DNA from: Sorghum bicolor
Taxonomy: Eukaryota > Streptophyta > Magnoliopsida > Poales > Poaceae
Length of the DNA: 64,000 bases
Assembly: GCF_000003195.3 (NCBI RefSeq)
Contig: NC_012872.2
Coordinates: 50,387,695 to 50,451,694 of the forward strand
Direction: 5' to 3'
The stretch's first letter is position 1. Each line of letters starts with the position of its first letter. Shown piece by piece: positions 43,439 through 58,719 of this stretch. The notes beneath the pieces were generated by a model. It made no database searches and was not told where the DNA came from. It saw only the letters and a list, made by a program, of their open reading frames with translations. The translations under genes were made by a program, and so were the position numbers.

Positions 43439-43532
43439 GTTATCTAGATTAGACCTTGAGGCAATGCATCTTAGTTATCTGTCTTTAAATTCGGTTTAGG
43501 TTTACTATTATCATCAGTTTGCTATCAGTTTG

Positions 43533-43991
43533 TGTGGGGGTATAAACCCCTATACCCTTACGACTGGACTTGGGCCAGGAGGCTTGGCCCATTACGAGAC
43601 GAGTTCAAAGCTTGATCCGACAACCTGGAGTTCCGCGCAAGGAAACAAGATGTGGAGATCAAGCAGGATTTCTGGTCGGTTAGAATAGGAATTGATATCG
43701 AATTATCCATGGCAATTGTAACCGACTAGGATTAGTTTCTAGATCTGTAACCCTGCCCTCCAGACTATATAAGGAGGGGCAAGGGACCCCCTAGGACAGA
43801 TGATCTCTCAACACAATCCAATACAACCAGACGCAGGACGTAGGTATTACGCCAACTCGGCGGCCGAACCTGGATAAAAAGCTTGTCCGTGTCTTGCGTC
43901 ACCATCGAGTTCGTAGTTTGCGCACCGTCAACCGATAAACTACTACCGTGGGTATACCCCAAGGTAGACTGCCGACTAGCTTTCGTCGACA
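43533..43991 (+). repeat. 5' LTR of element C
   Basis: The 459-bp LTR runs TGTGGGGGTATAAACC...TTTCGTCGACA. I see no difference from the right copy. A likely TATA box, gactatataagg, is at 43763-43774. Confidence 0.95.
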
Positions 43992-44011
43992 GTGGCGCGC
44001 CAGGTAGGGGG
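43992..44011 (+). promoter_or_regulatory. primer-binding site of element C
   Basis: TGGCGCGCCAGGTAGGGGG starts one base after the LTR. It is identical over 19 nt to the site of element A, so both probably use the same non-initiator tRNA primer. Confidence 0.75.
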
Positions 44012-44039
44012 TGTGCGTGCAACTTTTCCGGCGAACAAG

Positions 44040-47000
44040 ATGGTCACGATCCCAGCTTCCGCGACCGTGCCCGAAGGCCTCACGTTCACCGTCGGCCAGA
44101 TCACGTGGACGACGTGCAGCGGCGGCTTCGCGACCATGGTTCCGAAAGAGATCCAGATCCGATATGAGATCACGCCGTCTCCGACCACACGCACGACGGC
44201 ACCAAGCGCCCGACCACCGTTCCCATTCTACAAGGGAAAGGAGATCGACTGCTCGGACCTCCTCCAAGCGCTCGATCGCGCTGACTCCAAGCTACTCGAA
44301 GTCTCCCAACTAATAGATGGAGTTCTGCGCCGGCCCGACCAAGCTGCTCGAGCGGATTTTTCGAAATCCCGCCGGCCAACTCGTGTCGCCACACACGAAC
44401 GGCTGGGAACGTCCCTGACGATAACCTCAACCCCCTCAGGACGATCTGTCGAGCTCAAGAAGGAAGACTATCCTTGCGGCCTGAACAACTCGGCCTCTGT
44501 TTACTCACAGCATGTCCAATCCGTTTTCAGCAAGGCGGGTTGGTCGCCGACAAGGAACAATCGTCACCATGTCAACATGGTGACAATCCGAGAGCTACGG
44601 GACGGCCAGGTTTCCAGCACCAACTCAAGCACCGGCTCCGTCCCCACCGAGGTTATAAACACCGAAGACGAGGGCTACGACCTGGATTTTCCTTCACACC
44701 CTCCGGGTTTCGACCGATTCCCGATATTCCCCCCCCCCCGGCGAGGGGATATTGTGTTCAATGTCAGCGCCGACGAACCGGCCGTTGACGGAGAAACAGA
44801 TGACCAGAGGCAACTCCGCGAACAGCGTAACGCCGATCGCGCCCGACGACGTGCGGACGAGCAACAACAGATGCCACCAAATAACCTCAACGATGCCTTT
44901 GACATGGTCGGGGACCAGCCAGTCTACAAAACGCCAAGCGCCAACGTGGCTGTCGCCATGGCTAACCTGGATCGGCTTCCTGACACCCCCGAATGCCAGG
45001 GAGTCCGGACCAGCATCCGAGCACACCTGATCGCCGCAATGGGACAGACAGCCACTCTGCTCAAGAGAGTCCAGGACGTCTCTTATACGGAAGCCGCCTC
45101 CGACCAGACCAATCGTAGCCAGGTCTCACCCAGCAGGCGTCACCGCAGCCGCTCCCCCGACAACCGTCGATGGGACTCGCGGCGCGACGATGGTGGTCGG
45201 GACGCCGATGGCCGCCGCAAGCAGAACCGCATACGCGGCCAAGAAGAAGATCAACACAGGGATCTCCGCCACAACATCCCTTCCAAAGATGCCCGGGACC
45301 GCATCAACAGGCGCGCTGCAGAGAGGGCAGTCCACGAAAACCTGCGCCGCATCGAGTACGATGCAACCCACGGTCCTCCGGGCCTAAGACAGTTCTCCTC
45401 ACACCTCCGCCAGGTCGTGTGGCCCCGCAATTTCAAGCTCGAAAAACTTAAAAAATACGACGGCAAGGAAAATCCAGAGAACTGGATCACCCTCTATGAA
45501 ATCGCCGTCCGATCAGCGGCAGGAGATGAGCACGTCATGGCTAACTACTTCCCCGTAGTCCTCGACCAGGCTGGTCATCAGTGGCTTCTCGGCTTGCCCG
45601 AGGACTCCTTTGACTCTTGGGAAGAGCTACGCCAGGCTTTCATCGACAACTTCATCGCCACATGCGAGCAGCCCGGAAACAAGTATGACCTTGAAAGGAT
45701 AAGGGACAGGAAGAATGAACCTCTGCGCGATTACATCCGACGATTCTCGGATATGCGCCTCAAAATCCCGAAGATTTCTCATGACGAGGCCATCTCAGCC
45801 TTCATCAAGGGCTTGCGTTTCCACGAAGCGCTGAGGAACAAGCTGTTGCGTAAGCGCCCATCAACGGTAGCAGAGCTCCTCGCCACGGCCAAAAATTATG
45901 CCGATGCCGATGACGCAGAAAAACTAATCCGAGACGATGCGAGAGGCCCCGACCAGCCTCCCCGGCGAGATGACGGACGTGGTCGCTACGACAACAGAAA
46001 TCACCGCCGCTCCGACAACCGCGATCACCGAGAGGGTTGGGATCGGCGGCGCGACAGCCGCGACGACTTCAGAGGAAAGCGCCCTCGCGACTACGACCAC
46101 GAAGTAAATACGGTCAAACGTCCCAATGGGCGACGGGACTACCAAGAAGACTACAACAAAACGTTGAAGGGACCATGCCAGCTACACCCAAAGTCCAATC
46201 ATACCATGGAAGAGTGCCGCGTCCTCAAAAGTATCTATACACGGCGGGTCGCCCAAGAGGACTCCGCCAAGAAAAATAACAAGCGCGACGGGCACGACCA
46301 TGAAGATGAGGATGAAGACCAAGATAGGGACCCCCGACACCAATACGTCAGCCCCACTGACGTGGTCCACTCCATTTTCGGGGGCAAGGTCTCCACTGAG
46401 TCCAAGCGAGAAAGAAAGCTGTTAAAGAGAGCCTGCCTCAACATAGACAGCACGGACGGGCTGATCGCAGATCCGAAATTTCCCACGTGGTCCCACAGGG
46501 AGATCTCGTTCAGCAGGAAGGACCAGTGGGCCGCTATCCCAGAGCCGGGTCGTTTCCCACTGATTCTTGACCCCTGCATCAACAGCATCAGATTCGAGCG
46601 CGTGCTCGTGGACGGGGGAAGCTCCATCGACATCCTCTTCCGCAACAGCCTGCCCGCCCTCAAGATATCACCGGCACAACTAAAACCTTACGACGCCCAA
46701 TTCTGGGGGGTTTTGCCAGGTCAAAGTTCAGTGCCCCTCGGACAGATAACATTGCCTGTCCAATTCAGCACACCCGACCACTTCCGGACGGAGTTCATCA
46801 ACTTCGTAGTCGCGGATTTCGACGGGACCTATCACGCCATACTGGGCCGCCCATCGCTGACAAAGTTCATGGCAGTCCCGCACTACTCATACCTGGTCCT
46901 TAAGATGCCCACGGAGAAGGGCGTCCTAACCGTCAGAGGCAACGTCTACACTGCGTACACCTGCGAAGAAGAAAGCTTCAAGATCACCGAGGCAATCGAC

Positions 47001-47183
47001 CTCTCAATCCGCATGGCGGAAACAGCAAACCAAGCCGCACAGCTACCTCCCGACCAGCTCCGATTGCCCGAAGAGGCGACAGCCAGGAAGAACTCAAAAT
47101 CCAAGGAGTACAAAGAAGTGCAGCTGGTCGAAGGCAACCCTGAGAAGACAGCCCTCATCGGGGCCAACCTGGGTCCAAAATAG
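44040..47183 (+). CDS. gag-protease polyprotein of element C
   Basis: The frame has 1047 codons from the ATG at 44040, ending in UAG at 47181-47183. The first ~450 residues are low-complexity and charged, with an Arg/Ser/Asp-rich stretch. The capsid-type retrotransposon gag domain lies at about 460-625 (motifs YDGKENPENWITLYE, NDLERIRDRKNEPLRDYIRRF-like). An Arg/Asp/His-rich region follows, then a knuckle-like CQLHPKSNHTMEEC near 712. The protease, from about 850, has VDGGSSIDILF at the active site and ILGRPSLTKFMAVPHYSYL after it. The stop is followed in the same frame by reverse transcriptase, so it may be read through, as in element A. The gag is uninterrupted. Confidence 0.85.
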   Translation: MVTIPASATVPEGLTFTVGQITWTTCSGGFATMVPKEIQIRYEITPSPTTRTTAPSARPPFPFYKGKEIDCSDLLQALDRADSKLLEVSQLIDGVLRRPDQAARADFSKSRRPTRVATHERLGTSLTITSTPSGRSVELKKEDYPCGLNNSASVYSQHVQSVFSKAGWSPTRNNRHHVNMVTIRELRDGQVSSTNSSTGSVPTEVINTEDEGYDLDFPSHPPGFDRFPIFPPPRRGDIVFNVSADEPAVDGETDDQRQLREQRNADRARRRADEQQQMPPNNLNDAFDMVGDQPVYKTPSANVAVAMANLDRLPDTPECQGVRTSIRAHLIAAMGQTATLLKRVQDVSYTEAASDQTNRSQVSPSRRHRSRSPDNRRWDSRRDDGGRDADGRRKQNRIRGQEEDQHRDLRHNIPSKDARDRINRRAAERAVHENLRRIEYDATHGPPGLRQFSSHLRQVVWPRNFKLEKLKKYDGKENPENWITLYEIAVRSAAGDEHVMANYFPVVLDQAGHQWLLGLPEDSFDSWEELRQAFIDNFIATCEQPGNKYDLERIRDRKNEPLRDYIRRFSDMRLKIPKISHDEAISAFIKGLRFHEALRNKLLRKRPSTVAELLATAKNYADADDAEKLIRDDARGPDQPPRRDDGRGRYDNRNHRRSDNRDHREGWDRRRDSRDDFRGKRPRDYDHEVNTVKRPNGRRDYQEDYNKTLKGPCQLHPKSNHTMEECRVLKSIYTRRVAQEDSAKKNNKRDGHDHEDEDEDQDRDPRHQYVSPTDVVHSIFGGKVSTESKRERKLLKRACLNIDSTDGLIADPKFPTWSHREISFSRKDQWAAIPEPGRFPLILDPCINSIRFERVLVDGGSSIDILFRNSLPALKISPAQLKPYDAQFWGVLPGQSSVPLGQITLPVQFSTPDHFRTEFINFVVADFDGTYHAILGRPSLTKFMAVPHYSYLVLKMPTEKGVLTVRGNVYTAYTCEEESFKITEAIDLSIRMAETANQAAQLPPDQLRLPEEATARKNSKSKEYKEVQLVEGNPEKTALIGANLGPK

Positions 47184-50100
47184 GAAGACGCGCTCGTCAG
47201 GTTTCTAAGGGACAACGTGAGCGTTTTCGCATGGAAACCCGCAGACATGCCCGGTGTTCCACGAAACCTGATCGAGCACTCCTTAAATGTCTCGAAGACC
47301 GCAAGACCAATCAAGCAAAAACTGCGACGGTTCACTCGTGACAAAAAGGAGGCTATTAGGGCAGAAATAACACGGCTTCTAGCAGCCGGATTCATAAAAG
47401 AAGTGTATCACCCCGATTGGCTCGCCAATCCGGTTCTTGTACGCAAAAAGAATAATGAATGGAGAATGTGCGTTGATTACACTGATCTTAACAAACACTG
47501 TCCTAAAGATCCTTTTGGTCTCCCTCGCATCGACGAGGTGGTCGACTCAACGGCCAGATGCGAACTCCTCTCCTTTCTAGACTGCTACTCTGGTTATCAC
47601 CAGATCTCGCTAAAGGAAGAAGATCAGATCAAAACATCCTTCATCACACCCTTCGGCGCATACTGCTACACGACCATGTCTTTCGGACTCAAAAACGCCG
47701 GGGCCACTTATCAAAGGGCCATCCAGCAATGCCTCCACGACGAGATTCGCGATGACCTCGTCGAGGCCTATGTGGACGACATGGTCGTAAAAACAAGGGA
47801 CGCGAGCACCCTAATCGACAACTTAGACCGAACCTTCAAGGCACTCAATAGGTACAAGTGGAAGCTCAACCCCAAGAAATGCATTTTCGGCGTTCCTTCC
47901 GGTCTACTGCTCGGCAACGTCGTCAGTCGCGACGGCATACGACCAAACCCTTCAAAAGTCAAAGCCGTACTCGGCATGCGACCACCGAAGAACGTCAAGG
48001 ACATTCAGAAGCTAACCGGATGCATGGCCGCCCTCAGTCGTTTCATCTCAAGGCTGGGAGAAAAAGGCCTCCCTTTCTTCAAACTATTGAAAGCGTCAGA
48101 AAAATTTTCTTGGACAGAGGAAGCCGACGCTGCGTTCACTCAGCTTAAGACCTTCCTCACTTCACCACCTGTCCTCACAGCGCCTCAACCCAATGAAGAC
48201 CTACTTCTTTACATTGCTGCAACCGACAGGGTTGTTTCCACGACAATAGTGGTCGAGCGAGATGAACCAGGTCACGCCTACAAGGTCCAGAGACCCGTTT
48301 ACTTCATAAGTGAAGTCCTAAATGAGTCCAAGGCCAGGTATCCACAAATACAGAAGCTCATATACGCCATTCTGATAACGTCAAGAAAGCTGAAGCACTA
48401 CTTCGACGGCCATCGAGTCCTGGTGACAACCAGTTTCCCTCTCGGGGACATCCTGCGCAATAAAGACGCCAATGGCAGAATCGTGAAATGGGCGATGGAA
48501 TTGTGCCCATTTTCGCTGGAGTTCCAGAGCCGAACTACGGTCAAGTCTCAGGCCCTGGTCGATTTCATTGCTGAATGGACGGATCTCAATGAGCCTCCCG
48601 TTCCCGATGTCTCAGACCACTGGTCAATGTTCTTTGATGGGTCCTTGAACATCAACGGTGCCGGCGCTGGGGTACTGTTCGTATCACCCAACAAGGACAA
48701 ACTGCGTTACGTCCTTCGGATCCTTTTTTCGGCGTCAAACAACGTCGCCGAATACGAAGCATGCTTGCATGGCATAAGACTAGCCGTTGAATTGGGGGTC
48801 AAGCGCCTCTATGTCTATGGCGACTCCGCTTTGGTCATCAACCAGCTCAACAAGGAGTGGGACGCAACCCACGAGAAGATGGATCTCTACTGCAAAGAAA
48901 TTCGCAAATGGGAAGCCAACTTCTATGGCATAGAATACATCCACGTGGTCCGGGATAAGAACCAAGCAGCAGATGCGTTGTCAAAGTTAGGCTCATCTCG
49001 GGCCCAAATCCCGCGGGGTATTTTCATCCAGGACATCCATGAGCCGAGCGTAGGCTCCTCCCTGGTCGACAAGCAACCCACCGAGGCAATGCTCATAGAC
49101 GACGCCACTCCGACAACCGGTGGGCGTGACTGGCGTACCCCGTTCATCAAATACATATCAGACGGGACAGGTTTTCAGGACAAAACAGAGAACGAGCGCC
49201 TCATCCGACGATCAAAGAACTACATCCTGGTCGACGGAAAACTCATGCGGAAAAACGCAAGCTCCGAAGTACTGCTCAAGTGCATACCCCAAGATGATGG
49301 TATCAAGCTCTTAGAGGACATACATGCTGGATCCTGCGGCAATCACGCCGCATCTAGAACGTTGGTCGGAAAGGCTTTCCGAGCAGGCTTTTATTGGCCA
49401 ACCGCGGTCGGCGACGCAGAAAAACTGGTTCGACATTGCGAAGGATGTCAGTTTTTCGCTAAGAGGACCCATGTACCTGCCCATGAAATTCAAACCATCC
49501 CGTCGTCTTGGCCCTTTGCTTGCTAGGGGCTTGACATGATCGGACCATTTAAACCAGCCCCGGGCAATTTCAAGTTTGTCTTCGTGTTAATCGACAAGTT
49601 CTCCAAGTGGATTGAATACATGCCCATGGTCAAGGCAACCTCCGAGAAGGCTGTCGAGTTCCTCAATCAAATCATACACAGATTCGGCATCCCGAACAAC
49701 ATAATCACCGATCTGGGCACTCAGTTTACTGGCACTACTTTTTGGGACTTCTGCGATGACAGAGGCATAGTCATAAAATACGTGTCAGTGGCACATCCAC
49801 GTGCCAACGATCAAGTTGAACGTGCTAACGGAATGATCGTTGACGCCCTAAAGAAAAGGTTGTACACCGAAAACGACAGAGCACCCGGTCGATGGATGAA
49901 AGAATTGCCGGCGGTGGTCTGGGGCCTCCGAACTCAGACCAGTCGAAACACAGGGGTGTCTCCCTACTTCATGGTGTATGGTGCACAGGCGGTCCTGCCG
50001 TCCGACATACACTTCGGATCTCCTAGAATCGAACACTTCGACCAGGCGACCGCCGACAACGCCAGAGAACTCGAAATCAATTGCATGGAGGAAAAGCGTT

Positions 50101-50369
50101 TAGATTCTTGCCTCCGAACATCAAAATATCTCACGGCAGTCAGGCGATACTACAACAGGAACGTCAAAGACCGTTCCTTTGTGGTCGGCGATCTGGTACT
50201 TCGATGGAAAACAAGCCAGGAGGGAATGCACAAGCTATCCACTCCCTGGGAAGGACCTTTCGTGGTGACCGAGGTCACACGACCCACGTCCTACAGATTG
50301 GCATACCCAGACGGAACACGAGTGCCTAACTCTTGGCACATCGACAAACTGCGACGTTTCTATCCATAA
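47184..50369 (+). pseudogene. pol of element C: RT, two RNase H regions, integrase
   Basis: In frame with gag after the UAG. RT has [20 protein letters not shown] and YVDDMV (about 47768). A first RNase H-like region ([20 protein letters not shown]) lacks the normal acidic pattern. A second RNase H ([14 protein letters not shown] ... [11 protein letters not shown] ... [10 protein letters not shown]) looks complete. This double RNase H is a known Tat trait. Integrase follows with an HHCC finger (H..H, CEGCQFF). A UAG at 49524-49526 then interrupts the frame just before the core; the remaining core and C-terminus (49527-50369) are open and end DKLRRFYP. The core reads ITDLGTQF where related integrases have an Asn after the catalytic Asp. 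Confidence 0.87.
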
Positions 50370-50646
50370 AGTTTTGATAACTTTCCTTTGTAAGTATCTT
50401 ATAATTTTTGATAATGAAATTCTCTATTTTTTGCCTATACCTTGTCGCACACAGCACTCGGCAAAACTCCTGCAATGGATGCTCCTAGCGACTACCGAGA
50501 CGAATACGGTGACACGTCACTCAGATATTCTTACAGCGCTCAAAACAACAGTCATGACAAAAAGCAAACTTTATTACAAACTTTACACACAAAGTTTACA
50601 ATAAATACCCTGACGGGCAGACACTAGTCTATTTCTACAGACTACT
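50370..50646. other. spacer between convergent pol and antisense gene of C
   Basis: Less than 300 bp separates the pol stop (50369) from the stop of the antisense gene (50647). No gene is seen; it may carry both polyadenylation regions. Confidence 0.4.
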
Positions 50647-53600
50647 TTATTGGCCTAGCTGCTCGGGCTGATCACCCGCCTGGCCCTGCTGCCCGGACGA
50701 AGGGGTCGGGGCCACCGGCGCCTGGCTGGTCAAGACCGCAGGCGTCGACCGCCCATCTCCCGCAACGGACGCGCCCGACAACTCCCTGGCCGACCTATCT
50801 GAACTCGGCTGGTCTGGAGGAGTGGCCGTTCCGCACAGATTGATGTCGCCGATCACCGTCGACGACAAGTCCAGCAGACTACCCCGAAGTTCGTCCGCTT
50901 CCTGAGGGCCGACTTCCTTCGGGTACCCCTTCTCCAGCCTACTCAAGTCGACCAGGGGGTAGTGGGCGCGCACCATGCTGAGGACGTGCGCGCCGGCAAA
51001 CTCCCCAGCGTCCTTCACAAACTGCTGGAGCCAGTCCCACGCCCGTTGCGCCTTCTCGACCGGGGTCAACTGCGGCGCGCGGGGCTGGCTCTCCGGGAGC
51101 TCGGGACTGATCAGGTCTAGGACCGGGGACACTCCTTTCCAGATCCTGCAACAGTTGACCTTCCATGAGTCCTGGTCCTTGATCAGATCATCCAGGTGCT
51201 TCTTGGCGTTCACCTTGAGCACTGCAAACGAAACAAGGCGTTATTTTCGGCATACTAAACAAACAAAGGGGCGACAAGCAGCAGCTAACAAGGCGGCACC
51301 CATTACCAGATAATTCCCGGTCCTTTCGGCCCAATTCCTCTCCTGCTCGCCGCCCGGACTCCAGCGCACCGGCGAGCTGTTGGCTGAGCTGCTCCTTCTC
51401 TTGTCGGAGGCGCGCCACCTCCTCCTCCAAGTCTGTGTGAACCATAAACTGGTCAGTAAAGCAAACTACACAAGTACGCAAAGCTGCTCGGAGCGTGTGA
51501 CTAACCTTCTCGCTGCCGGTACTGGTCGGCCAAGCGACGAGTGAGGTCGAGACGACGCTCCTCCTGGACACTCATCTCGGCCACCTTCTCCCCGACCTCC
51601 GAACGCAGCCGGTCTACCTCCGCGGCAAGGGCCTTTGAAAGGTCCAAATGGCTAGAGGGGGGGGGGTGAATAGCCTATTTAAAATTTCTACAAACTTCAC
51701 TAAGCAAGTGAGTTAGTAAAACAAAAGGCGAAGCTATTTTAGCACTAGCACAACTAAGCTATGCAAGCCACCTATACAAGTCTAGTACAAGGCTAAACAC
51801 TAAAGCACAACAACAAGAGAACTAAGCTAAACAAGCTACACAACTAGCAAGGTAAGCAAGTATGTAAAGAGAGGAGAGTGATTGTTATACCGACGTTGTA
51901 GAGATGAGATATATCCAATCAATCACGTACACAATTACAAGAGAGACCTCGGCAAGAGATGACACAAGATTTTTTACCGAGGTTCACTTGCTTCCCGGCA
52001 AGCTACTCCTCGTTGTGGCGATACACCCACTTGATGGATCACGAGCTAATTGGCAATCCAAAGCCAAACCCTCAGCGGGTGCCGCACATCCACTCACAAG
52101 ATGGGGATCCTCCAAGCCACGAGCAATCCACTAGAGTAGCCAATTGCGATCTCCCGCGGGGAAGGCTCAAGAACCCCTCACAAATCACTTGGTGAGGCTC
52201 GAAACAATCTCCAATCACGAGCTCAACACCACCGCTGCTCCAAGCCGTCTAGGGCGTCGGGAAACACCCAAGAGTAACAAGAAATCCGCAGCAAACTCAA
52301 GAATCAAGTGCCACTAAATGCAACTCTCAAAGCAATGCACTTGAATCTCACTCAATCTCACTAGGATGAGCAATCAAGCAAGGAGATGAGTGGAGGGAGT
52401 GTTCTCTAGCTCAATGTATACCTCAAGTAATCAAATGTCCAAGAGAGAGCCTCCCAAAGCCGGCCACCCTTCTATTTATAAGCCCCTCAAAGAAACTAGC
52501 CGTTGGCCACTTTCACTGGGCTGAAATCGGGGGCACCGGACGCTACTAAGTGAGCACCGGACGCTCGACTCCCTGCGTCCGGTGCACTGGAGTTGGCCAC
52601 GTGTCCTCTTTGAATCTCGCGTGTCAGATTCTAACGGTCACCTGCGGACCACCGGACGCTCTGCAAGTCCACACCGGACGGTCCGGTGCTCACCGGACTC
52701 GTGCGCAGAGAGGGTGTCAAACTCGCGACCTCACCGGACGCTGGGCACCGGACGGTCCGGTGCTCACCGGACTCGTACGCAGAGAGGGTTACAAAACCCC
52801 CTCACACCGGACACTGAGCACCGGACTCACTCCAGTGAGTCCGGTGCATACCTGCGCCACAGACACCACACCGGACGCTCTGGACCAGCGTCCGGTGCTG
52901 CCAGCACCAGCGTCCGGTGAGTGTTTCTCAGTGAGAAAACACTCCCGCGACTTCACCAAATTTCCCATCGGCGCAATAGAAAATATACTCTTATTTTTCT
53001 CAAAAGCGCCGAATCCCGCCTCGCAAGCTCGGCGGGAGAGAGAGAGGAACCCACACCCCTCTCAACCCTAGGAACTCCACCTCCTTTGTAAATGTGCTAA
53101 CACCAACAAGTGTCCACCACCAAGGTGCAAGTGTGTTAGCTTTTTCACAAACATTTTCACCAAAGGAGTTAAGTTAGCACTTTACTACATCCTAATGCAT
53201 ATGCTCAAGATATGGACCTAGTAGCACTTGATTCGAGAGATGACCATGATTTCCCCTCTTGATAGTCGGCTATCTATCCTAAACCCGGTCAATCACTTCT
53301 CTACTCATCTTAGACCGGCAAAAGTAAAACCCTATGTTTATACCTTTGCCTTGATAACTTTGCTCCTCGTCTATTATCATGATCTCCACATCAAGCTTCA
53401 TCCCTTTGTGATCGTGTGGCCACCTATCCATGCCACCATGCACCTTCATCACATGTGTTGCTATGCCTAACTCAAATCACTTAAACACAAGGCATTAGCA
53501 ACTTGGTGTCATTAATTACCAAAACCAAACTTGGGCTTTCAGCCTTGTTCTCGGCCATGACGCCTTCTATCTGGTCAAAGCACCGTTTCCGGTACTTTGC

Positions 53601-55733
53601 CGTTTTCATTGCGCCCTACAAAGCGAGCATATAACGACCATGCAAGACAAGGCATAGAATGTACAGCAGTACAAAAAGTCGCTTACCTTGACTTCGTCGA
53701 CGAGGCGTTTGGCCGCGCGCTCCACCCTGGCGGCCTCTTCGGTCTCGGCGAGCTCCTCATGCCCGATAAAGTGATCCCCGCGTTGGCGCCACACATACAC
53801 GTGTTGGCGGCCATCACGGGGACGACCCTCAATCTCTTCCACCTCATCATCGGAGGCCGCCCGGGTTTCCTCCTCCTGTGCTGCGTCACCCCCGGTGGTG
53901 GTCCCAGGTATTACTGGTCCTCGGACCAGATCTGGGGAGCCCGCAGCCGAAGAGGCTCCTGCTCGGGGCGGCGTGGGGACTTCACTCCCCCCGGCAGGAG
54001 GAGCGGTCGGAGATCTTCCCTCCTCTGAGGAGCCAGTTGGGGGAGCCTCTCCAGCCCTGGTCGGGCTGCCTGCCGTAGTCGGTGCCGCGGTCGGGAGCCC
54101 CTCGGTGCTCCCAGGCGCGACTGCAGCTGTTGGCTGCTCTGTGGTCTGGGGGGCCGTATCCTCAGCAGCGTGGACTGGCTCGCCCGTCCCCTGGCTGGCA
54201 GCCTGGCCGGGGTCGACATCCGACGCCGCACTACAGGAACAAAAGTGTAATTTCAAAAAAAAAAAAATTCAAAGAGGAGTCCAAAATACGTAAGTCGAAC
54301 ACTTACAGGTCTGATCGACGGTGGGTGGCGGTGAACCTCCTCCTCGCCCGGCCGGTCGGCACCTGCGCCCCCATCTCGACAACTTGCGGTGCATGGGCGT
54401 CGCTGGCCACTCGATCAGTAGCGGCCGGCGCAATATCTGGGCGGCCCCGGGGCCGTCGGACCAACGACGGCGCAGCCTCCTCGTCGTCGTCGTCGTCGTC
54501 AACGATCCGCACGAGCCGACGACGCTTCGGTGCTTGGCTGCTCTCCGCCGGTAGATCTGCCGGCAGCTTCGGTGTCGGCAAAGGATCTGCCGGCAATGGC
54601 CTCTTCCCCGCTACCCTCTCCTCGGAGGTCGGGACGGGGCGGGCTTGGTCCTCTTCACTGCTGGTGTAATGAGTACACCGAGCAGCGTCCTCCTCTGGCA
54701 GGTCTTCTCCCGCAGGATTTTCCATCCCCGGTGCCAGTGATACATACACTGTGCACCAGTCGACATCGCCGATCTGCAAAAGCAACAGAGATGAGTCAGC
54801 TGCCGACGATATACGAATGCTAAAACAAAATAATCTGCTACATACCTTTGGTGCTGGTCGTCCTAACTTGAAGGCTTGCACCCGATCACTGCCACGGATG
54901 AAGCCTCCGTCCGCGAAGTTAAACAGCTCGTTCAACAGCTGTTGTACCTCCGCTTTCTCCAAGATCTCTGGCCGCATCCTGGTCGGGTCCACGCTTCCGG
55001 CATACTCGTACGCCGAGTGCACCCTCTTCTGGCAGGGCATCACCCGACGACAAATGAAGTTGCCGACCACGCCAAGCCCGTCCAGGCGCGACCAGTCGAT
55101 CAGCTTCATGAGATCCGCCACTGGACCGTCGAACTCCGGGCGGTCGGTCCAGCTCATCCTCTTCTCAGGAATGTATCCCACGTCGCAGAATGTGGAGCTG
55201 CCCGGTTCCTCCCTGATGTAGAACCACTTCCTGTACCATTCGGTCAAGGAAGTGTTCCATGGACAGTGCAGGTAGCGATTCTTCATTCCATCACGAAGGT
55301 TGAGGTATACTCCACCTGCAACCTTGGAGCCTCCAACTGCTCCCTTTTTCCTCAAGCAGAAAAGATACCGAAAAAGATCGAAGTGCGGCTCTATGCCAAC
55401 ATAGGCTTCGCACAGGTGGATAAAAGTGGAAATGAGGAGAATTGAGTTCGGGTGCAGATTGCAAATCCCGATCTCATAGTATAAAAGAAGACCTTGAAGA
55501 AAAGGATGAACAGGAACACCAAAGCCCCTCTTAATGAAATCTTCAAATACGACGATCTCACCGGCGCGAGGGTCGGGGTAGCTCTCCCCCTCCGGTGCCC
55601 TCCAGCCGCCGAGCTCCGGGCTGTGAAGAAGCCCCATATCGACGAGGTCACCAAGAGATTTCGTGGTGCTGCGAGACTTCTTCCACTCCCTGGCCATCAG
55701 TTCGGCCCTCTTCCTGGAGTCGCTCTTCGCCAT
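50647..55733 (-). pseudogene. six-exon antisense gene (aORF) of Tat element C, interrupted by solo LTR F
   Basis: Exons on the minus strand are 55733-54846, 54773-54307, 54230-53687, 53615-53542 continued at 51630-51506 (F lies between), 51432-51307 and 51221-50647. All introns have GT/AG ends and all phases agree, totalling 2799 nt or 932 codons plus stop when F and one target copy are ignored. The product starts MAKSDSRKRAELMAREWKKS. The N-terminal domain (about residues 25-290, for example RGFGVPVHPFLQGLLLYYE, CNLHPNSILL) resembles the Pfam 'putative gypsy type transposon' family. A basic RRLVRIV stretch and an Asp/Glu/Ala/Pro-rich middle follow, then a coiled coil (exons 4-5) and a C-terminal part with RAHYPLVDLSRLEKGY. 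The homologue in A has the same order. Role unknown. The strand and introns mean it needs its own transcript. Confidence 0.82.
51636..53541 (-). mobile_element. solo LTR F (Copia/Sirevirus-like) inside the antisense gene of C
   Basis: A 1906-bp LTR with ends TGAAAGGTCC and GGGCTTTCA is flanked by the perfect duplication gcctt (51631-51635 and 53542-53546). There is no internal domain or second LTR, so it is a solo LTR from recombination between the two LTRs. From 52530 to 52920 it carries CACCGGACGCT/GCGTCCGGTGC palindromes. On the minus strand a TATA-like CTTATAAATAG is near 52473-52483. It breaks exon 4 of the antisense gene. Confidence 0.9.
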
Positions 55734-55833
55734 TAGAGGTGCGAATGTGGGCTTGAGTTAGGAAGATGCAGGCGATTGGGGGAGATGAGAGCGGAAGGTT
55801 TGAAGGCAATGGCAGGGTAAGCAGTACAGGTGG

Positions 55834-55842
55834 AACTATCAG
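55834..55842 (-). promoter_or_regulatory. TATA-like box of the antisense gene in C
   Basis: On the minus strand the sequence GCTATAAGAGCC lies about 100 bp before the ATG at 55733. Its position matches the box before the antisense gene of element A. Confidence 0.5.
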
Positions 55843-56144
55843 GCTCTTATAGCCCGCAACTCCACCTCTCCCACTTCCCGTATTCTCGGGAAGTGGGCAG
55901 GCCATGCGGCGGATGCGGCGTTTCGGTTTACAATGATTATAGACAATTAATGCGGCGGATTTTTCGTACCAATTGATGGTTTCCTTTTCTCAAACCATGC
56001 AAAGGGCGGCTGCACAGTTGCCAGGCGCAACTTTTCATGCATCCGTCTGACACCCCGTCAGGAGGCCTCGTCACGTCAACTTTAACTGGAAAGATCTTTT
56101 CAAAAAACAAGAAGACACATACGCCAGAGAGTCAACAATCCGAG

Positions 56145-56424
56145 GACTGCGCCGACCACCGAGCATTCGATGCTCGGGGACTGGTCGCCCAGTCTATCAG
56201 CTCGGAACTTCAAGGACTGCGCCGACCACCGAGCATTCGACGCTCGGGGACTGGTCGCCCAGTCTATCAGCTCGGAACTTCAAGGACTGCGCCGACCACC
56301 GCGCACTCGACGCTCGGGGACTGGTCGCCCAGTCTATCAGCTAGAAGCTTTAAAGAACTGCACCGACCACCGAGCACTCGATGCTCGGGGACTGGTCGTA
56401 CAGTACAGCAACTCAGAATTCTAA
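56145..56424 (+). repeat. four 70-bp tandem repeats upstream of the 3' LTR of C
   Basis: Copies start at 56145, 56215, 56285 and 56355 (ga(a)ctgc(g/a)ccgaccaccg). The first three are nearly identical and the fourth is diverged. Each holds a short palindrome of the type gagcattcgatgctc followed by tcggggactggtcg, which resembles the polypurine tract of the element. Confidence 0.85.
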
Positions 56425-56934
56425 AAAGCACTTGGTGCTTGGTGACTGGTCGATTAATCTATTCAATTGCAGTCAGACTGGTAAATTCAACTTTTTAGAC
56501 CTTGCTACAAGGCTCATACTTCGCCTTCCAGCAAGCTCGGGGACTACATCGGTACGATGCATCTGGCGATGCATCTCAGTTACAGAATTTCTTTGAGGAC
56601 TTTTGTTTTGACCCTGGCACCACGTGCCTGCGTCACCTGCTACCAGGCTCGGGGACTAAGTGGGCACACTTCACCTTGCGGTGAATTTGCTTGCTTTTTT
56701 GATGATTATACCTTTCAAAAAAGTAAAGTGGGCACACTTCACCAGGAAAGAAATCTTTTTTAATTTAGAGCACCATGCTTTCTTCGAACAACCTGCTTTT
56801 TCGATGTCAATGTTGATCAACTGTCTTTTGAGTTGGTCAAAATACCGTTGCAACTGTTCGGGCAACTTTCCTGAAGACGTCAAGCCTCACTGATCGAAGA
56901 AGCTCAAGACGGCGTGTTACATCATAATACATGG

Positions 56935-56949
56935 TGCTTGGGGACTAGC
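56935..56949 (+). promoter_or_regulatory. polypurine tract of element C
   Basis: gtgcttggggactagc is directly next to the 3' LTR. Similar 'gctcggggact' blocks occur earlier at about 56172, 56242, 56312, 56383, 56534 and 56650. Confidence 0.65.
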
Positions 56950-57408
56950 TGTGGGGGTATAAACCCCTATACCCTTACGACTGGACTTGGGCCAGGAGGC
57001 TTGGCCCATTACGAGACGAGTTCAAAGCTTGATCCGACAACCTGGAGTTCCGCGCAAGGAAACAAGATGTGGAGATCAAGCAGGATTTCTGGTCGGTTAG
57101 AATAGGAATTGATATCGAATTATCCATGGCAATTGTAACCGACTAGGATTAGTTTCTAGATCTGTAACCCTGCCCTCCAGACTATATAAGGAGGGGCAAG
57201 GGACCCCCTAGGACAGATGATCTCTCAACACAATCCAATACAACCAGACGCAGGACGTAGGTATTACGCCAACTCGGCGGCCGAACCTGGATAAAAAGCT
57301 TGTCCGTGTCTTGCGTCACCATCGAGTTCGTAGTTTGCGCACCGTCAACCGATAAACTACTACCGTGGGTATACCCCAAGGTAGACTGCCGACTAGCTTT
57401 CGTCGACA
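56950..57408 (+). repeat. 3' LTR of element C
   Basis: The 459-bp LTR is followed by the target duplication gtttg. I see no base difference from the 5' LTR. Confidence 0.95.
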
Positions 57409-57413
57409 GTTTG

Positions 57414-58719
<1,306 letters not shown>

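What the first reader, a model, noticed from the sequence alone, without database searches (positions are those of the whole stretch)
50647..55733. A complete spliced gene lies antisense to pol inside a young Tat retrotransposon
Seen: six minus-strand exons with GT/AG borders whose phases all agree and sum to exactly 933 codons including the stop, with a TATA-like box about 100 bp before the ATG. Only solo LTR F breaks it. Known: Tat-lineage elements may carry additional ORFs near the 3' LTR, sometimes antisense. Inferred: this is a selected, separately transcribed gene with a DCD-unrelated N-terminal domain, acidic/Pro middle, coiled coil and a conserved C-terminal domain. Its role (particle, RNA export, targeting or silencing suppression) is open.
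Basis: partly seen in the sequence, partly recalled or inferred. Interest (0 to 1): 0.85.

Follow-up and report, generated by a model that had tools for sequence, protein, structure and literature searches.

The report
Spliced antisense gene in sorghum retrotransposon
A sorghum jumping gene carries a naturally selected six-exon gene on its opposite strand; it belongs to a known family of accessory genes of unknown function, and the copy in this window is broken by another insertion.

Summary
Six minus-strand exons (55733-50647) with GT/AG borders total 933 codons including the stop; a 1,906-bp solo LTR splits exon 4. It is not chance. In up to 34 other copies from the same genome (709 Mb; most probably Sorghum bicolor) the ten splice sites keep GT/AG in 313 of 315 cases, although intron lengths run from 61 to 92 nt. 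On divergent copy pairs dN/dS is 0.09-0.34 per exon, against 1.19-2.63 in the wrong frames and 0.05 for integrase. A conserved upstream block and a TATA box suggest an own promoter.

It is a selected, intron-containing gene, but not of unknown kin: exon 1 holds the Pfam domain Transposase_28/TRP28 (PF04195). Antisense TRP28 genes between pol and the 3' LTR are published for 97% of Retand-lineage clusters (PMC11963269), and Grande gene23 has its own promoter (PMC7264820). The gene lies downstream of pol, not across it.

What I did not find in the papers read is the exon-intron structure, which joins TRP28, linkers, coiled coil and C-terminal domain in one protein. No RNA was examined; function is untested.

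The parts
43533..57408 (+). host Ty3/gypsy element of Tat/Retand type; LTRs 43533-43991 and 56950-57408 (459 bp, TG...CA, identical), target duplication GTTTG at 43528-43532 and 57409-57413
43980..50369 (+). gag and pol: three open frames between stops (43980-47183, 47184-49526, 49527-50369) with gag, RT, RNase H-type and integrase matches
54846..55733 (-). exon 1, ATG at 55733, 296 codons; Transposase_28 (PF04195) at residues 61-128
   Evidence: dN/dS 0.09
54307..54773 (-). exon 2; NLS-like PKRRRLVRI, acidic run, RRPRGRP
   Evidence: dN/dS 0.24
53687..54230 (-). exon 3; acidic, Pro/Ala/Thr/Ser-rich
   Evidence: dN/dS 0.34
53542..53615 (-). exon 4, upstream piece
51636..53541 (-). solo LTR of another element inserted in exon 4, duplication AAGGC at 53546-53542 and 51635-51631
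   Evidence: no gap at this place in 33 of 33 copies measured
51506..51630 (-). exon 4, downstream piece
51307..51432 (-). exon 5, coiled-coil-like heptads
50647..51221 (-). exon 6 with stop; conserved C-terminal domain, predicted helical at low confidence
55846..55851 (-). TATA-like box TATAAG, 118 nt before the ATG
   Evidence: TATAAR within 170 nt of the ATG in 30 of 31 copies
55870..55897 (.). inverted repeat, 11-bp perfect arms and 6-nt spacer, just upstream of the TATA box
   Evidence: core pattern at 682 genome sites against 0 for the reversed pattern
55859..56033 (-). conserved upstream block (-300 to -126 from the ATG), candidate own promoter
50570..50575 (-). AATAAA downstream of the stop (a second AATAAA, 50651-50646, overlaps the stop codon)
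   Evidence: an AATAAA between the stop and +150 in 30 of 30 copies, which may be either one

Best explanation
It is the antisense accessory gene (aORF-3R, TRP28 family, in the manner of Grande gene23) of a young Tat/Retand-type element in sorghum. Shown here by comparison: six coding exons, conserved splice sites, purifying selection on every exon, a conserved upstream block and a TATA box. Inferred: an own promoter drives a spliced antisense mRNA that ends near AATAAA, and the product (about 930 aa in unbroken copies) is nuclear, dimerises through the coiled coil and acts through the TRP28 domain. The introns can persist because on the genomic (sense) RNA they read backwards and are not removed before reverse transcription (inference). 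Most likely role, inferred (about 0.4): a nuclear regulator of its own element, acting on the element's non-coding DNA (upstream palindrome or 3' tandem repeats) to keep it expressed, rather than a particle protein. The copy in the window is broken. The confidence given is for the gene, its splicing and its kinship; the role alone is about 0.4.
For: PF04195 E = 5e-23 in exon 1. Splice dinucleotides kept in 313 of 315 site-by-copy cases, with intron lengths 61-92 nt, often not multiples of three. dN/dS 0.09-0.34 in frame against 1.19-2.63 in shifted frames; integrase 0.05. NCBI Sorghum models skip the same introns: E1/E2 in P0008; E3/E4, E4/E5 and E5/E6 in P0009. TATAAR in 30 of 31 copies, AATAAA in 30 of 30. 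Upstream block -300 to -126 at 0.09-0.15 substitutions/site, against 0.24-0.48 from -125 to -1 and 0.41-0.44 from -400 to -351. KRRR in exon 2 in 32 of 34 rows. Published: TRP28 in 97% of clusters (PMC11963269); gene23 antisense transcription from its own upstream promoter and nuclear product (PMC7264820).
Against: No RNA was examined. No spliced copy of the gene was found in the genome (0 for each of 3 junctions; 700 unspliced E1/intron-1 borders): neutral for splicing, no direct proof. P0009 is an odd model that repeats the same segments three times, and P0008 and P0010 use other donors at E2/E3 (by eye). Intron 1 of this copy can be read through in frame. dN/dS pairs share ancestry, and recombination mixes subfamilies: 4-fold rates vary from 0.03 to 0.66 along the gene. 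The stretch -450 to -401 is also slow (0.14-0.17, many gaps), and the TATA box lies in a fast bin (0.32) outside the slow block. The E1 and E6 models are poor (pLDDT 37 and 54) and no solved structure matches usefully, so the role rests on inference.
Confidence: 0.88

Rival explanations
1. The protein is a sequence-specific anti-silencing factor of the VANC kind: it binds its element's non-coding repeats and removes silencing marks. (A special case of the favoured role.)
For: The element has a 70-bp tandem array and a palindrome in a conserved block upstream of the gene; VANC targets often form tandem repeats (PMC5735166, abstract).
Against: No sequence relation to VANC was tested; tandem arrays occur in only about half of the Retand elements surveyed (PMC11963269), while TRP28 is nearly universal there.
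Confidence: 0.2
2. The protein carries the replication complex to the nucleus or exports genomic RNA, in the manner of retroviral accessory proteins or of CERV of Cer1.
For: NLS-like basic run in exon 2; CERV, encoded by a spliced mRNA of an LTR element, is required for genomic RNA export (PMC10309623, abstract).
Against: Pfam found no domain other than Transposase_28 above cut-off in the exon pieces. Whether the sense RNA is spliced, and so needs an export factor, was not tested.
Confidence: 0.2
3. The antisense transcript matters as RNA (dsRNA and siRNA control) and the reading frame is incidental.
For: Proposed as a possible function in PMC7264820.
Against: In-frame dN/dS 0.09-0.34 on every exon, with shifted frames above 1, and splice-site conservation show that the protein is selected; a role of the RNA in addition is not excluded.
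Confidence: 0.03
4. Chance: open frames and GT/AG borders picked by eye in a decaying element.
For: 20 of 35 fetched copies fail a simple integrity test, so many copies are decaying.
Against: Conservation across subfamilies; NCBI models with the same junctions.
Confidence: 0.01

Closest known systems
TRP28 (PF04195) antisense ORFs of Retand-lineage elements (Vicient 2025, PMC11963269)
   Same: Same domain, antisense, between pol and 3' LTR, with tandem repeats nearby; LTR and region sizes in the published ranges
   Different: The paper counts single ORFs (104 antisense ORFs) and its text holds no word 'intron'; here the antisense frames are exons of one six-exon gene
Grande gene23 of maize (Gomez-Orte 2013; seen only through PMC7264820)
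   Same: Antisense, between pol and 3' LTR, own promoter and nuclear product as reported there
   Different: Original paper not held, so exon structure and sequence could not be compared
Antisense ORFs of RIRE2 (rice) and Retand (Silene)
   Same: Position and orientation; Retand ORF4 carries Transposase_28 (PMC7264820)
   Different: Sequences not compared here
VANC proteins of VANDAL elements
   Same: Possible analogy only: element-encoded factor acting on repeats of its own element (PMC5735166, abstract)
   Different: Another kind of element (VANDALs are DNA transposons: recalled); homology not tested

Membership tests
Tat/Retand-lineage LTR retrotransposon | RT falls in the Retand clade | not tested
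   No reference RTs were aligned
Tat/Retand-lineage LTR retrotransposon | gag, RT, RNase H and integrase domains | tested here: met
   Retrotrans_gag, RVT_1, RT_RNaseH_2, RT_RNaseH, RVT_3 and rve above cut-off; no protease family was listed (some published clusters lack it too)
Tat/Retand-lineage LTR retrotransposon | LTR 315-1,194 bp; pol-3' LTR region 2.9-6.6 kb | tested here: met
   LTR 459 bp; pol-3' LTR 6,580 bp as it stands, about 4.7 kb without counting the solo LTR; ranges from PMC11963269
Tat/Retand-lineage LTR retrotransposon | antisense ORF with TRP28 between pol and 3' LTR | tested here: met
aORF-3R / TRP28 accessory gene | PF04195 above the curated cut-off | tested here: met
   81.5 bits against 26.2
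aORF-3R / TRP28 accessory gene | present in many copies with constraint like that of pol | tested here: met
   dN/dS 0.09-0.34 against integrase 0.05, so somewhat weaker; 150 PF04195 places over cut-off, 150 being all that were scored of 4,325 candidates
aORF-3R / TRP28 accessory gene | own antisense promoter | tested here: inconclusive
   conserved block and TATA box; no RNA
aORF-3R / TRP28 accessory gene | nuclear protein | not testable with these tools
   only an NLS-like run
VANC-type anti-silencing protein | binds motifs in the element's non-coding DNA and lowers methylation | not testable with these tools
   candidate target sequences only

The most novel reading that the evidence does not exclude
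The scattered antisense ORFs reported in Retand elements are exons of one old spliced gene, and its product is a sequence-specific regulator that acts on the palindrome upstream of its own TATA box (682 sites in this genome): an LTR retrotransposon with a self-targeted nuclear control circuit encoded on the strand opposite to its genome RNA.
Probability: 0.15. Interest if true: 0.75.

Novelty: new member of a known kind. Interest (0 to 1): 0.4.

Why it matters
Antisense TRP28 genes occur in nearly all of the recently active Retand elements surveyed in PMC11963269, yet their role is unknown. An exon map shows which protein to express and test, suggests how introns survive in an element that copies itself through RNA, and names a promoter block and a palindrome that can be tested directly.

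Tried and rejected
Structure: AlphaFold models of exon 1 (9 sequences, mean pLDDT 37.1) and exon 6 (36 sequences, 54.2) are too weak for a fold search, so none was run. Profiles of both against solved structures: 0 hits and one chance-level hit, E = 0.43. Spliced genomic copies as proof of splicing: 0 for each of 3 junction patterns with up to 3 mismatches, against 700 places for an unspliced border. The C-terminal profile against the five distant TRP28 loci L017-L021 gave no hit better than E = 0.54, so the six-exon layout is shown only within this clade. Palindrome elsewhere in the window: only the one site (up to 3 mismatches), so none in the LTR. Homology searches gave 12 proteins (only 7,995 candidates scored), 9 and 425 (120 listed, 35 aligned); of the 12 proteins, whose letters I saw, 7 carry intron 1 as protein, i.e. 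are frames read from genomic DNA, so they say nothing on splicing. Rejected: overlap with pol; antisense RNA as the sole function; chance.

Papers: parts 1-3 of 5 of PMC11963269 and passages; parts 1-2 of 3 of PMC7264820; passages of PMC6317226, PMC3091746, PMC11728184; abstracts and outlines of PMC10309623, PMC5735166, PMC10398659. Gomez-Orte 2013 and Steinbauerova 2011 are not held. That I did not find the exon structure in print covers only the papers named here and the listings.

Full report
Setting. The window is G000:C3:50387695-50451694 of a 709-Mb genome. Its contig C5 has the length 71,854,669, which is also the contig length given for the NCBI Sorghum bicolor proteins P0008 and P0009, so the host is most probably Sorghum bicolor. 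The element runs 43533-57408 with two identical 459-bp LTRs and a 5-bp target duplication GTTTG. It lies between older repeat pairs (38902-40107/58720-59930 at 96.7% and 32193-34028/61560-63418 at 94.5%), i.e. probably nested insertions. Gag, RT, RNase H-type and integrase matches are on the plus strand up to 50369.

The observation. The six exons, five introns and 933 codons are as described. The solo LTR lies inside exon 4 with the duplication AAGGC on both sides. The gene converges on pol with 277 nt between the two stops; it does not overlap pol.

Is it real? I fetched 40 stretches from the same genome. In 34 of them exon 2 was found, in a 35th (L051) only later exons, and five (L017-L021) are distant relatives in which only exon 1 was recognised. 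Splice sites (each counted only where the alignment reaches the border): E1 donor 33 of 33 GT; E2 acceptor 33 of 33 AG; E2 donor 33 of 33; E3 acceptor 30 of 30; E3 donor 33 of 34; E4 acceptor 29 of 29; E4 donor 27 of 28; E5 acceptor 32 of 32; E5 donor 33 of 33; E6 acceptor 30 of 30; together 313 of 315. Start ATG 31 of 31; a stop codon at the end of E6 in 25 of 26. Intron lengths run from 61 to 92 nt and are often not multiples of three. The copies were picked by similarity to the gene, so badly damaged copies are under-represented.

Selection. On pairs less than 95% identical (the window copy included as one row), dN/dS is 0.09 (E1, 280 pairs), 0.24 (E2, 385), 0.34 (E3, 361), 0.12 and 0.21 (two parts of E4, 262 and 365), 0.20 (E5, 269) and 0.16 (E6, 84); the same pairs read in the two wrong frames give 1.19 to 2.63. 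Copies with an internal stop: E1 3 of 30, E2 3 of 33, E3 2 of 32, E4 1 of 33 and 4 of 32, E5 1 of 32, E6 5 of 29. Integrase gives 0.05 on 33 pairs from 17 of 20 copies plus the window; three copies were dropped for short coverage and 4 of the 17 have stops. Pairs are not independent and subfamilies recombine, so these are summary figures, not a test on a tree. 15 of 35 copies have every exon aligned over 95% or more with no stop (a coarse measure by tblastn).

Splicing. NCBI models from sorghum join the same exons: E1/E2 in P0008; E3/E4, E4/E5 and E5/E6 in P0009. P0009 is an odd model that repeats the same segments three times. P0008 and P0010 use other donors for E2/E3 (by eye). Whether RNA supports these models is not shown. 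The genome holds no spliced copy (0 for three junctions) while the unspliced E1/intron-1 border occurs 700 times. That fits an element that copies only its sense RNA, in which these introns read backwards, but does not prove splicing.

Expression signals. TATAAR lies 111-130 nt before the ATG in 30 of 31 copies, and an AATAAA lies between the stop and +150 in 30 of 30; one AATAAA of the window overlaps the stop itself. Substitutions on E1-divergent pairs are 0.09-0.15 per site from -300 to -126, 0.24-0.48 from -125 to -1 (the TATA bin itself 0.32), 0.17-0.21 from -350 to -301, 0.41-0.44 from -400 to -351, and again 0.14-0.17 with many gaps from -450 to -401. The 4-fold sites of exon 1 give 0.19-0.42 on the same pairs. 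In the slow block lies a perfect inverted repeat, 11-bp arms with a 6-nt spacer, at 55870-55897. Its core pattern occurs at 682 genome sites and the reversed pattern at none. Some listed sites sit where expected before a listed TRP28 match (C1:4259918-4259943 beside C1:4259397-4259600 on the minus strand), but this was not checked for all. The whole block is slow, so the palindrome does not stand out within it.

The protein. Exon 1: Transposase_28, PF04195, E = 5e-23. Exon 2: basic run PKRRRLVRI (KRRR in 32 of 34 rows), an acidic run, then RRPRGRP in 19 of 34 rows (often PRSRP in the others), which resembles an AT-hook (label recalled). Exon 3: 44% Pro, Ala, Thr, Ser. Exon 5: heptad hydrophobic pattern reached by 2 of 2000 shuffles; the downstream part of exon 4 is not significant (451 of 2000), nor is the start of exon 6 (461 of 2000). 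Exon 6: 425 relatives at E <= 0.001, ten invariant columns among 36 aligned, predicted helical but with low confidence.

What is known. Vicient 2025 (PMC11963269) finds antisense TRP28 ORFs in 97% of Retand clusters and suggests DNA binding and regulation. The 2020 review (PMC7264820) reports antisense transcription of Grande gene23 from its own promoter and a nuclear product, and asks that antisense and spliced transcripts be looked for. So the kind is known. What I add is the exon map with conservation, dN/dS per exon with frame controls, the upstream footprint, and the view that separate antisense ORFs are exons of one gene, shown for this sorghum clade only.

How it may work. Shown: a selected, intron-containing gene. 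Inferred: own promoter, spliced antisense mRNA, nuclear dimeric protein. Committed guess, about 0.4: regulator of its own element through the element's non-coding DNA. Rivals are anti-silencing of the VANC kind (a special case of the same), and nuclear import or RNA export.

Noticed in passing
55870-55897: Perfect 11-bp inverted repeat just upstream of the TATA box; its core pattern occurs at 682 genome sites and 0 times reversed.
   Followed up: partly
56143-56423: 70-bp tandem array between gene and 3' LTR; the motif GCTCGGGGACT recurs six times between 56172 and 56657, and a near copy sits at 56936-56946, next to the 3' LTR where the polypurine tract is expected.
   Followed up: no
32193-63418: Repeat pairs at 94.5%, 96.7% and 100% identity from outside in: probably nested LTR elements whose order of nesting fits the order of age.
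   Followed up: no
50500-50646 and exon 6: On E1-divergent pairs the 3' flank of the gene (0.04 substitutions/site) and the end of exon 6 (0.03 at 4-fold sites) are far more alike than exon 1, which suggests recombination between subfamilies.
   Followed up: partly
57456-57500: Run of TAT repeats just beyond the element's 3' LTR.
   Followed up: no
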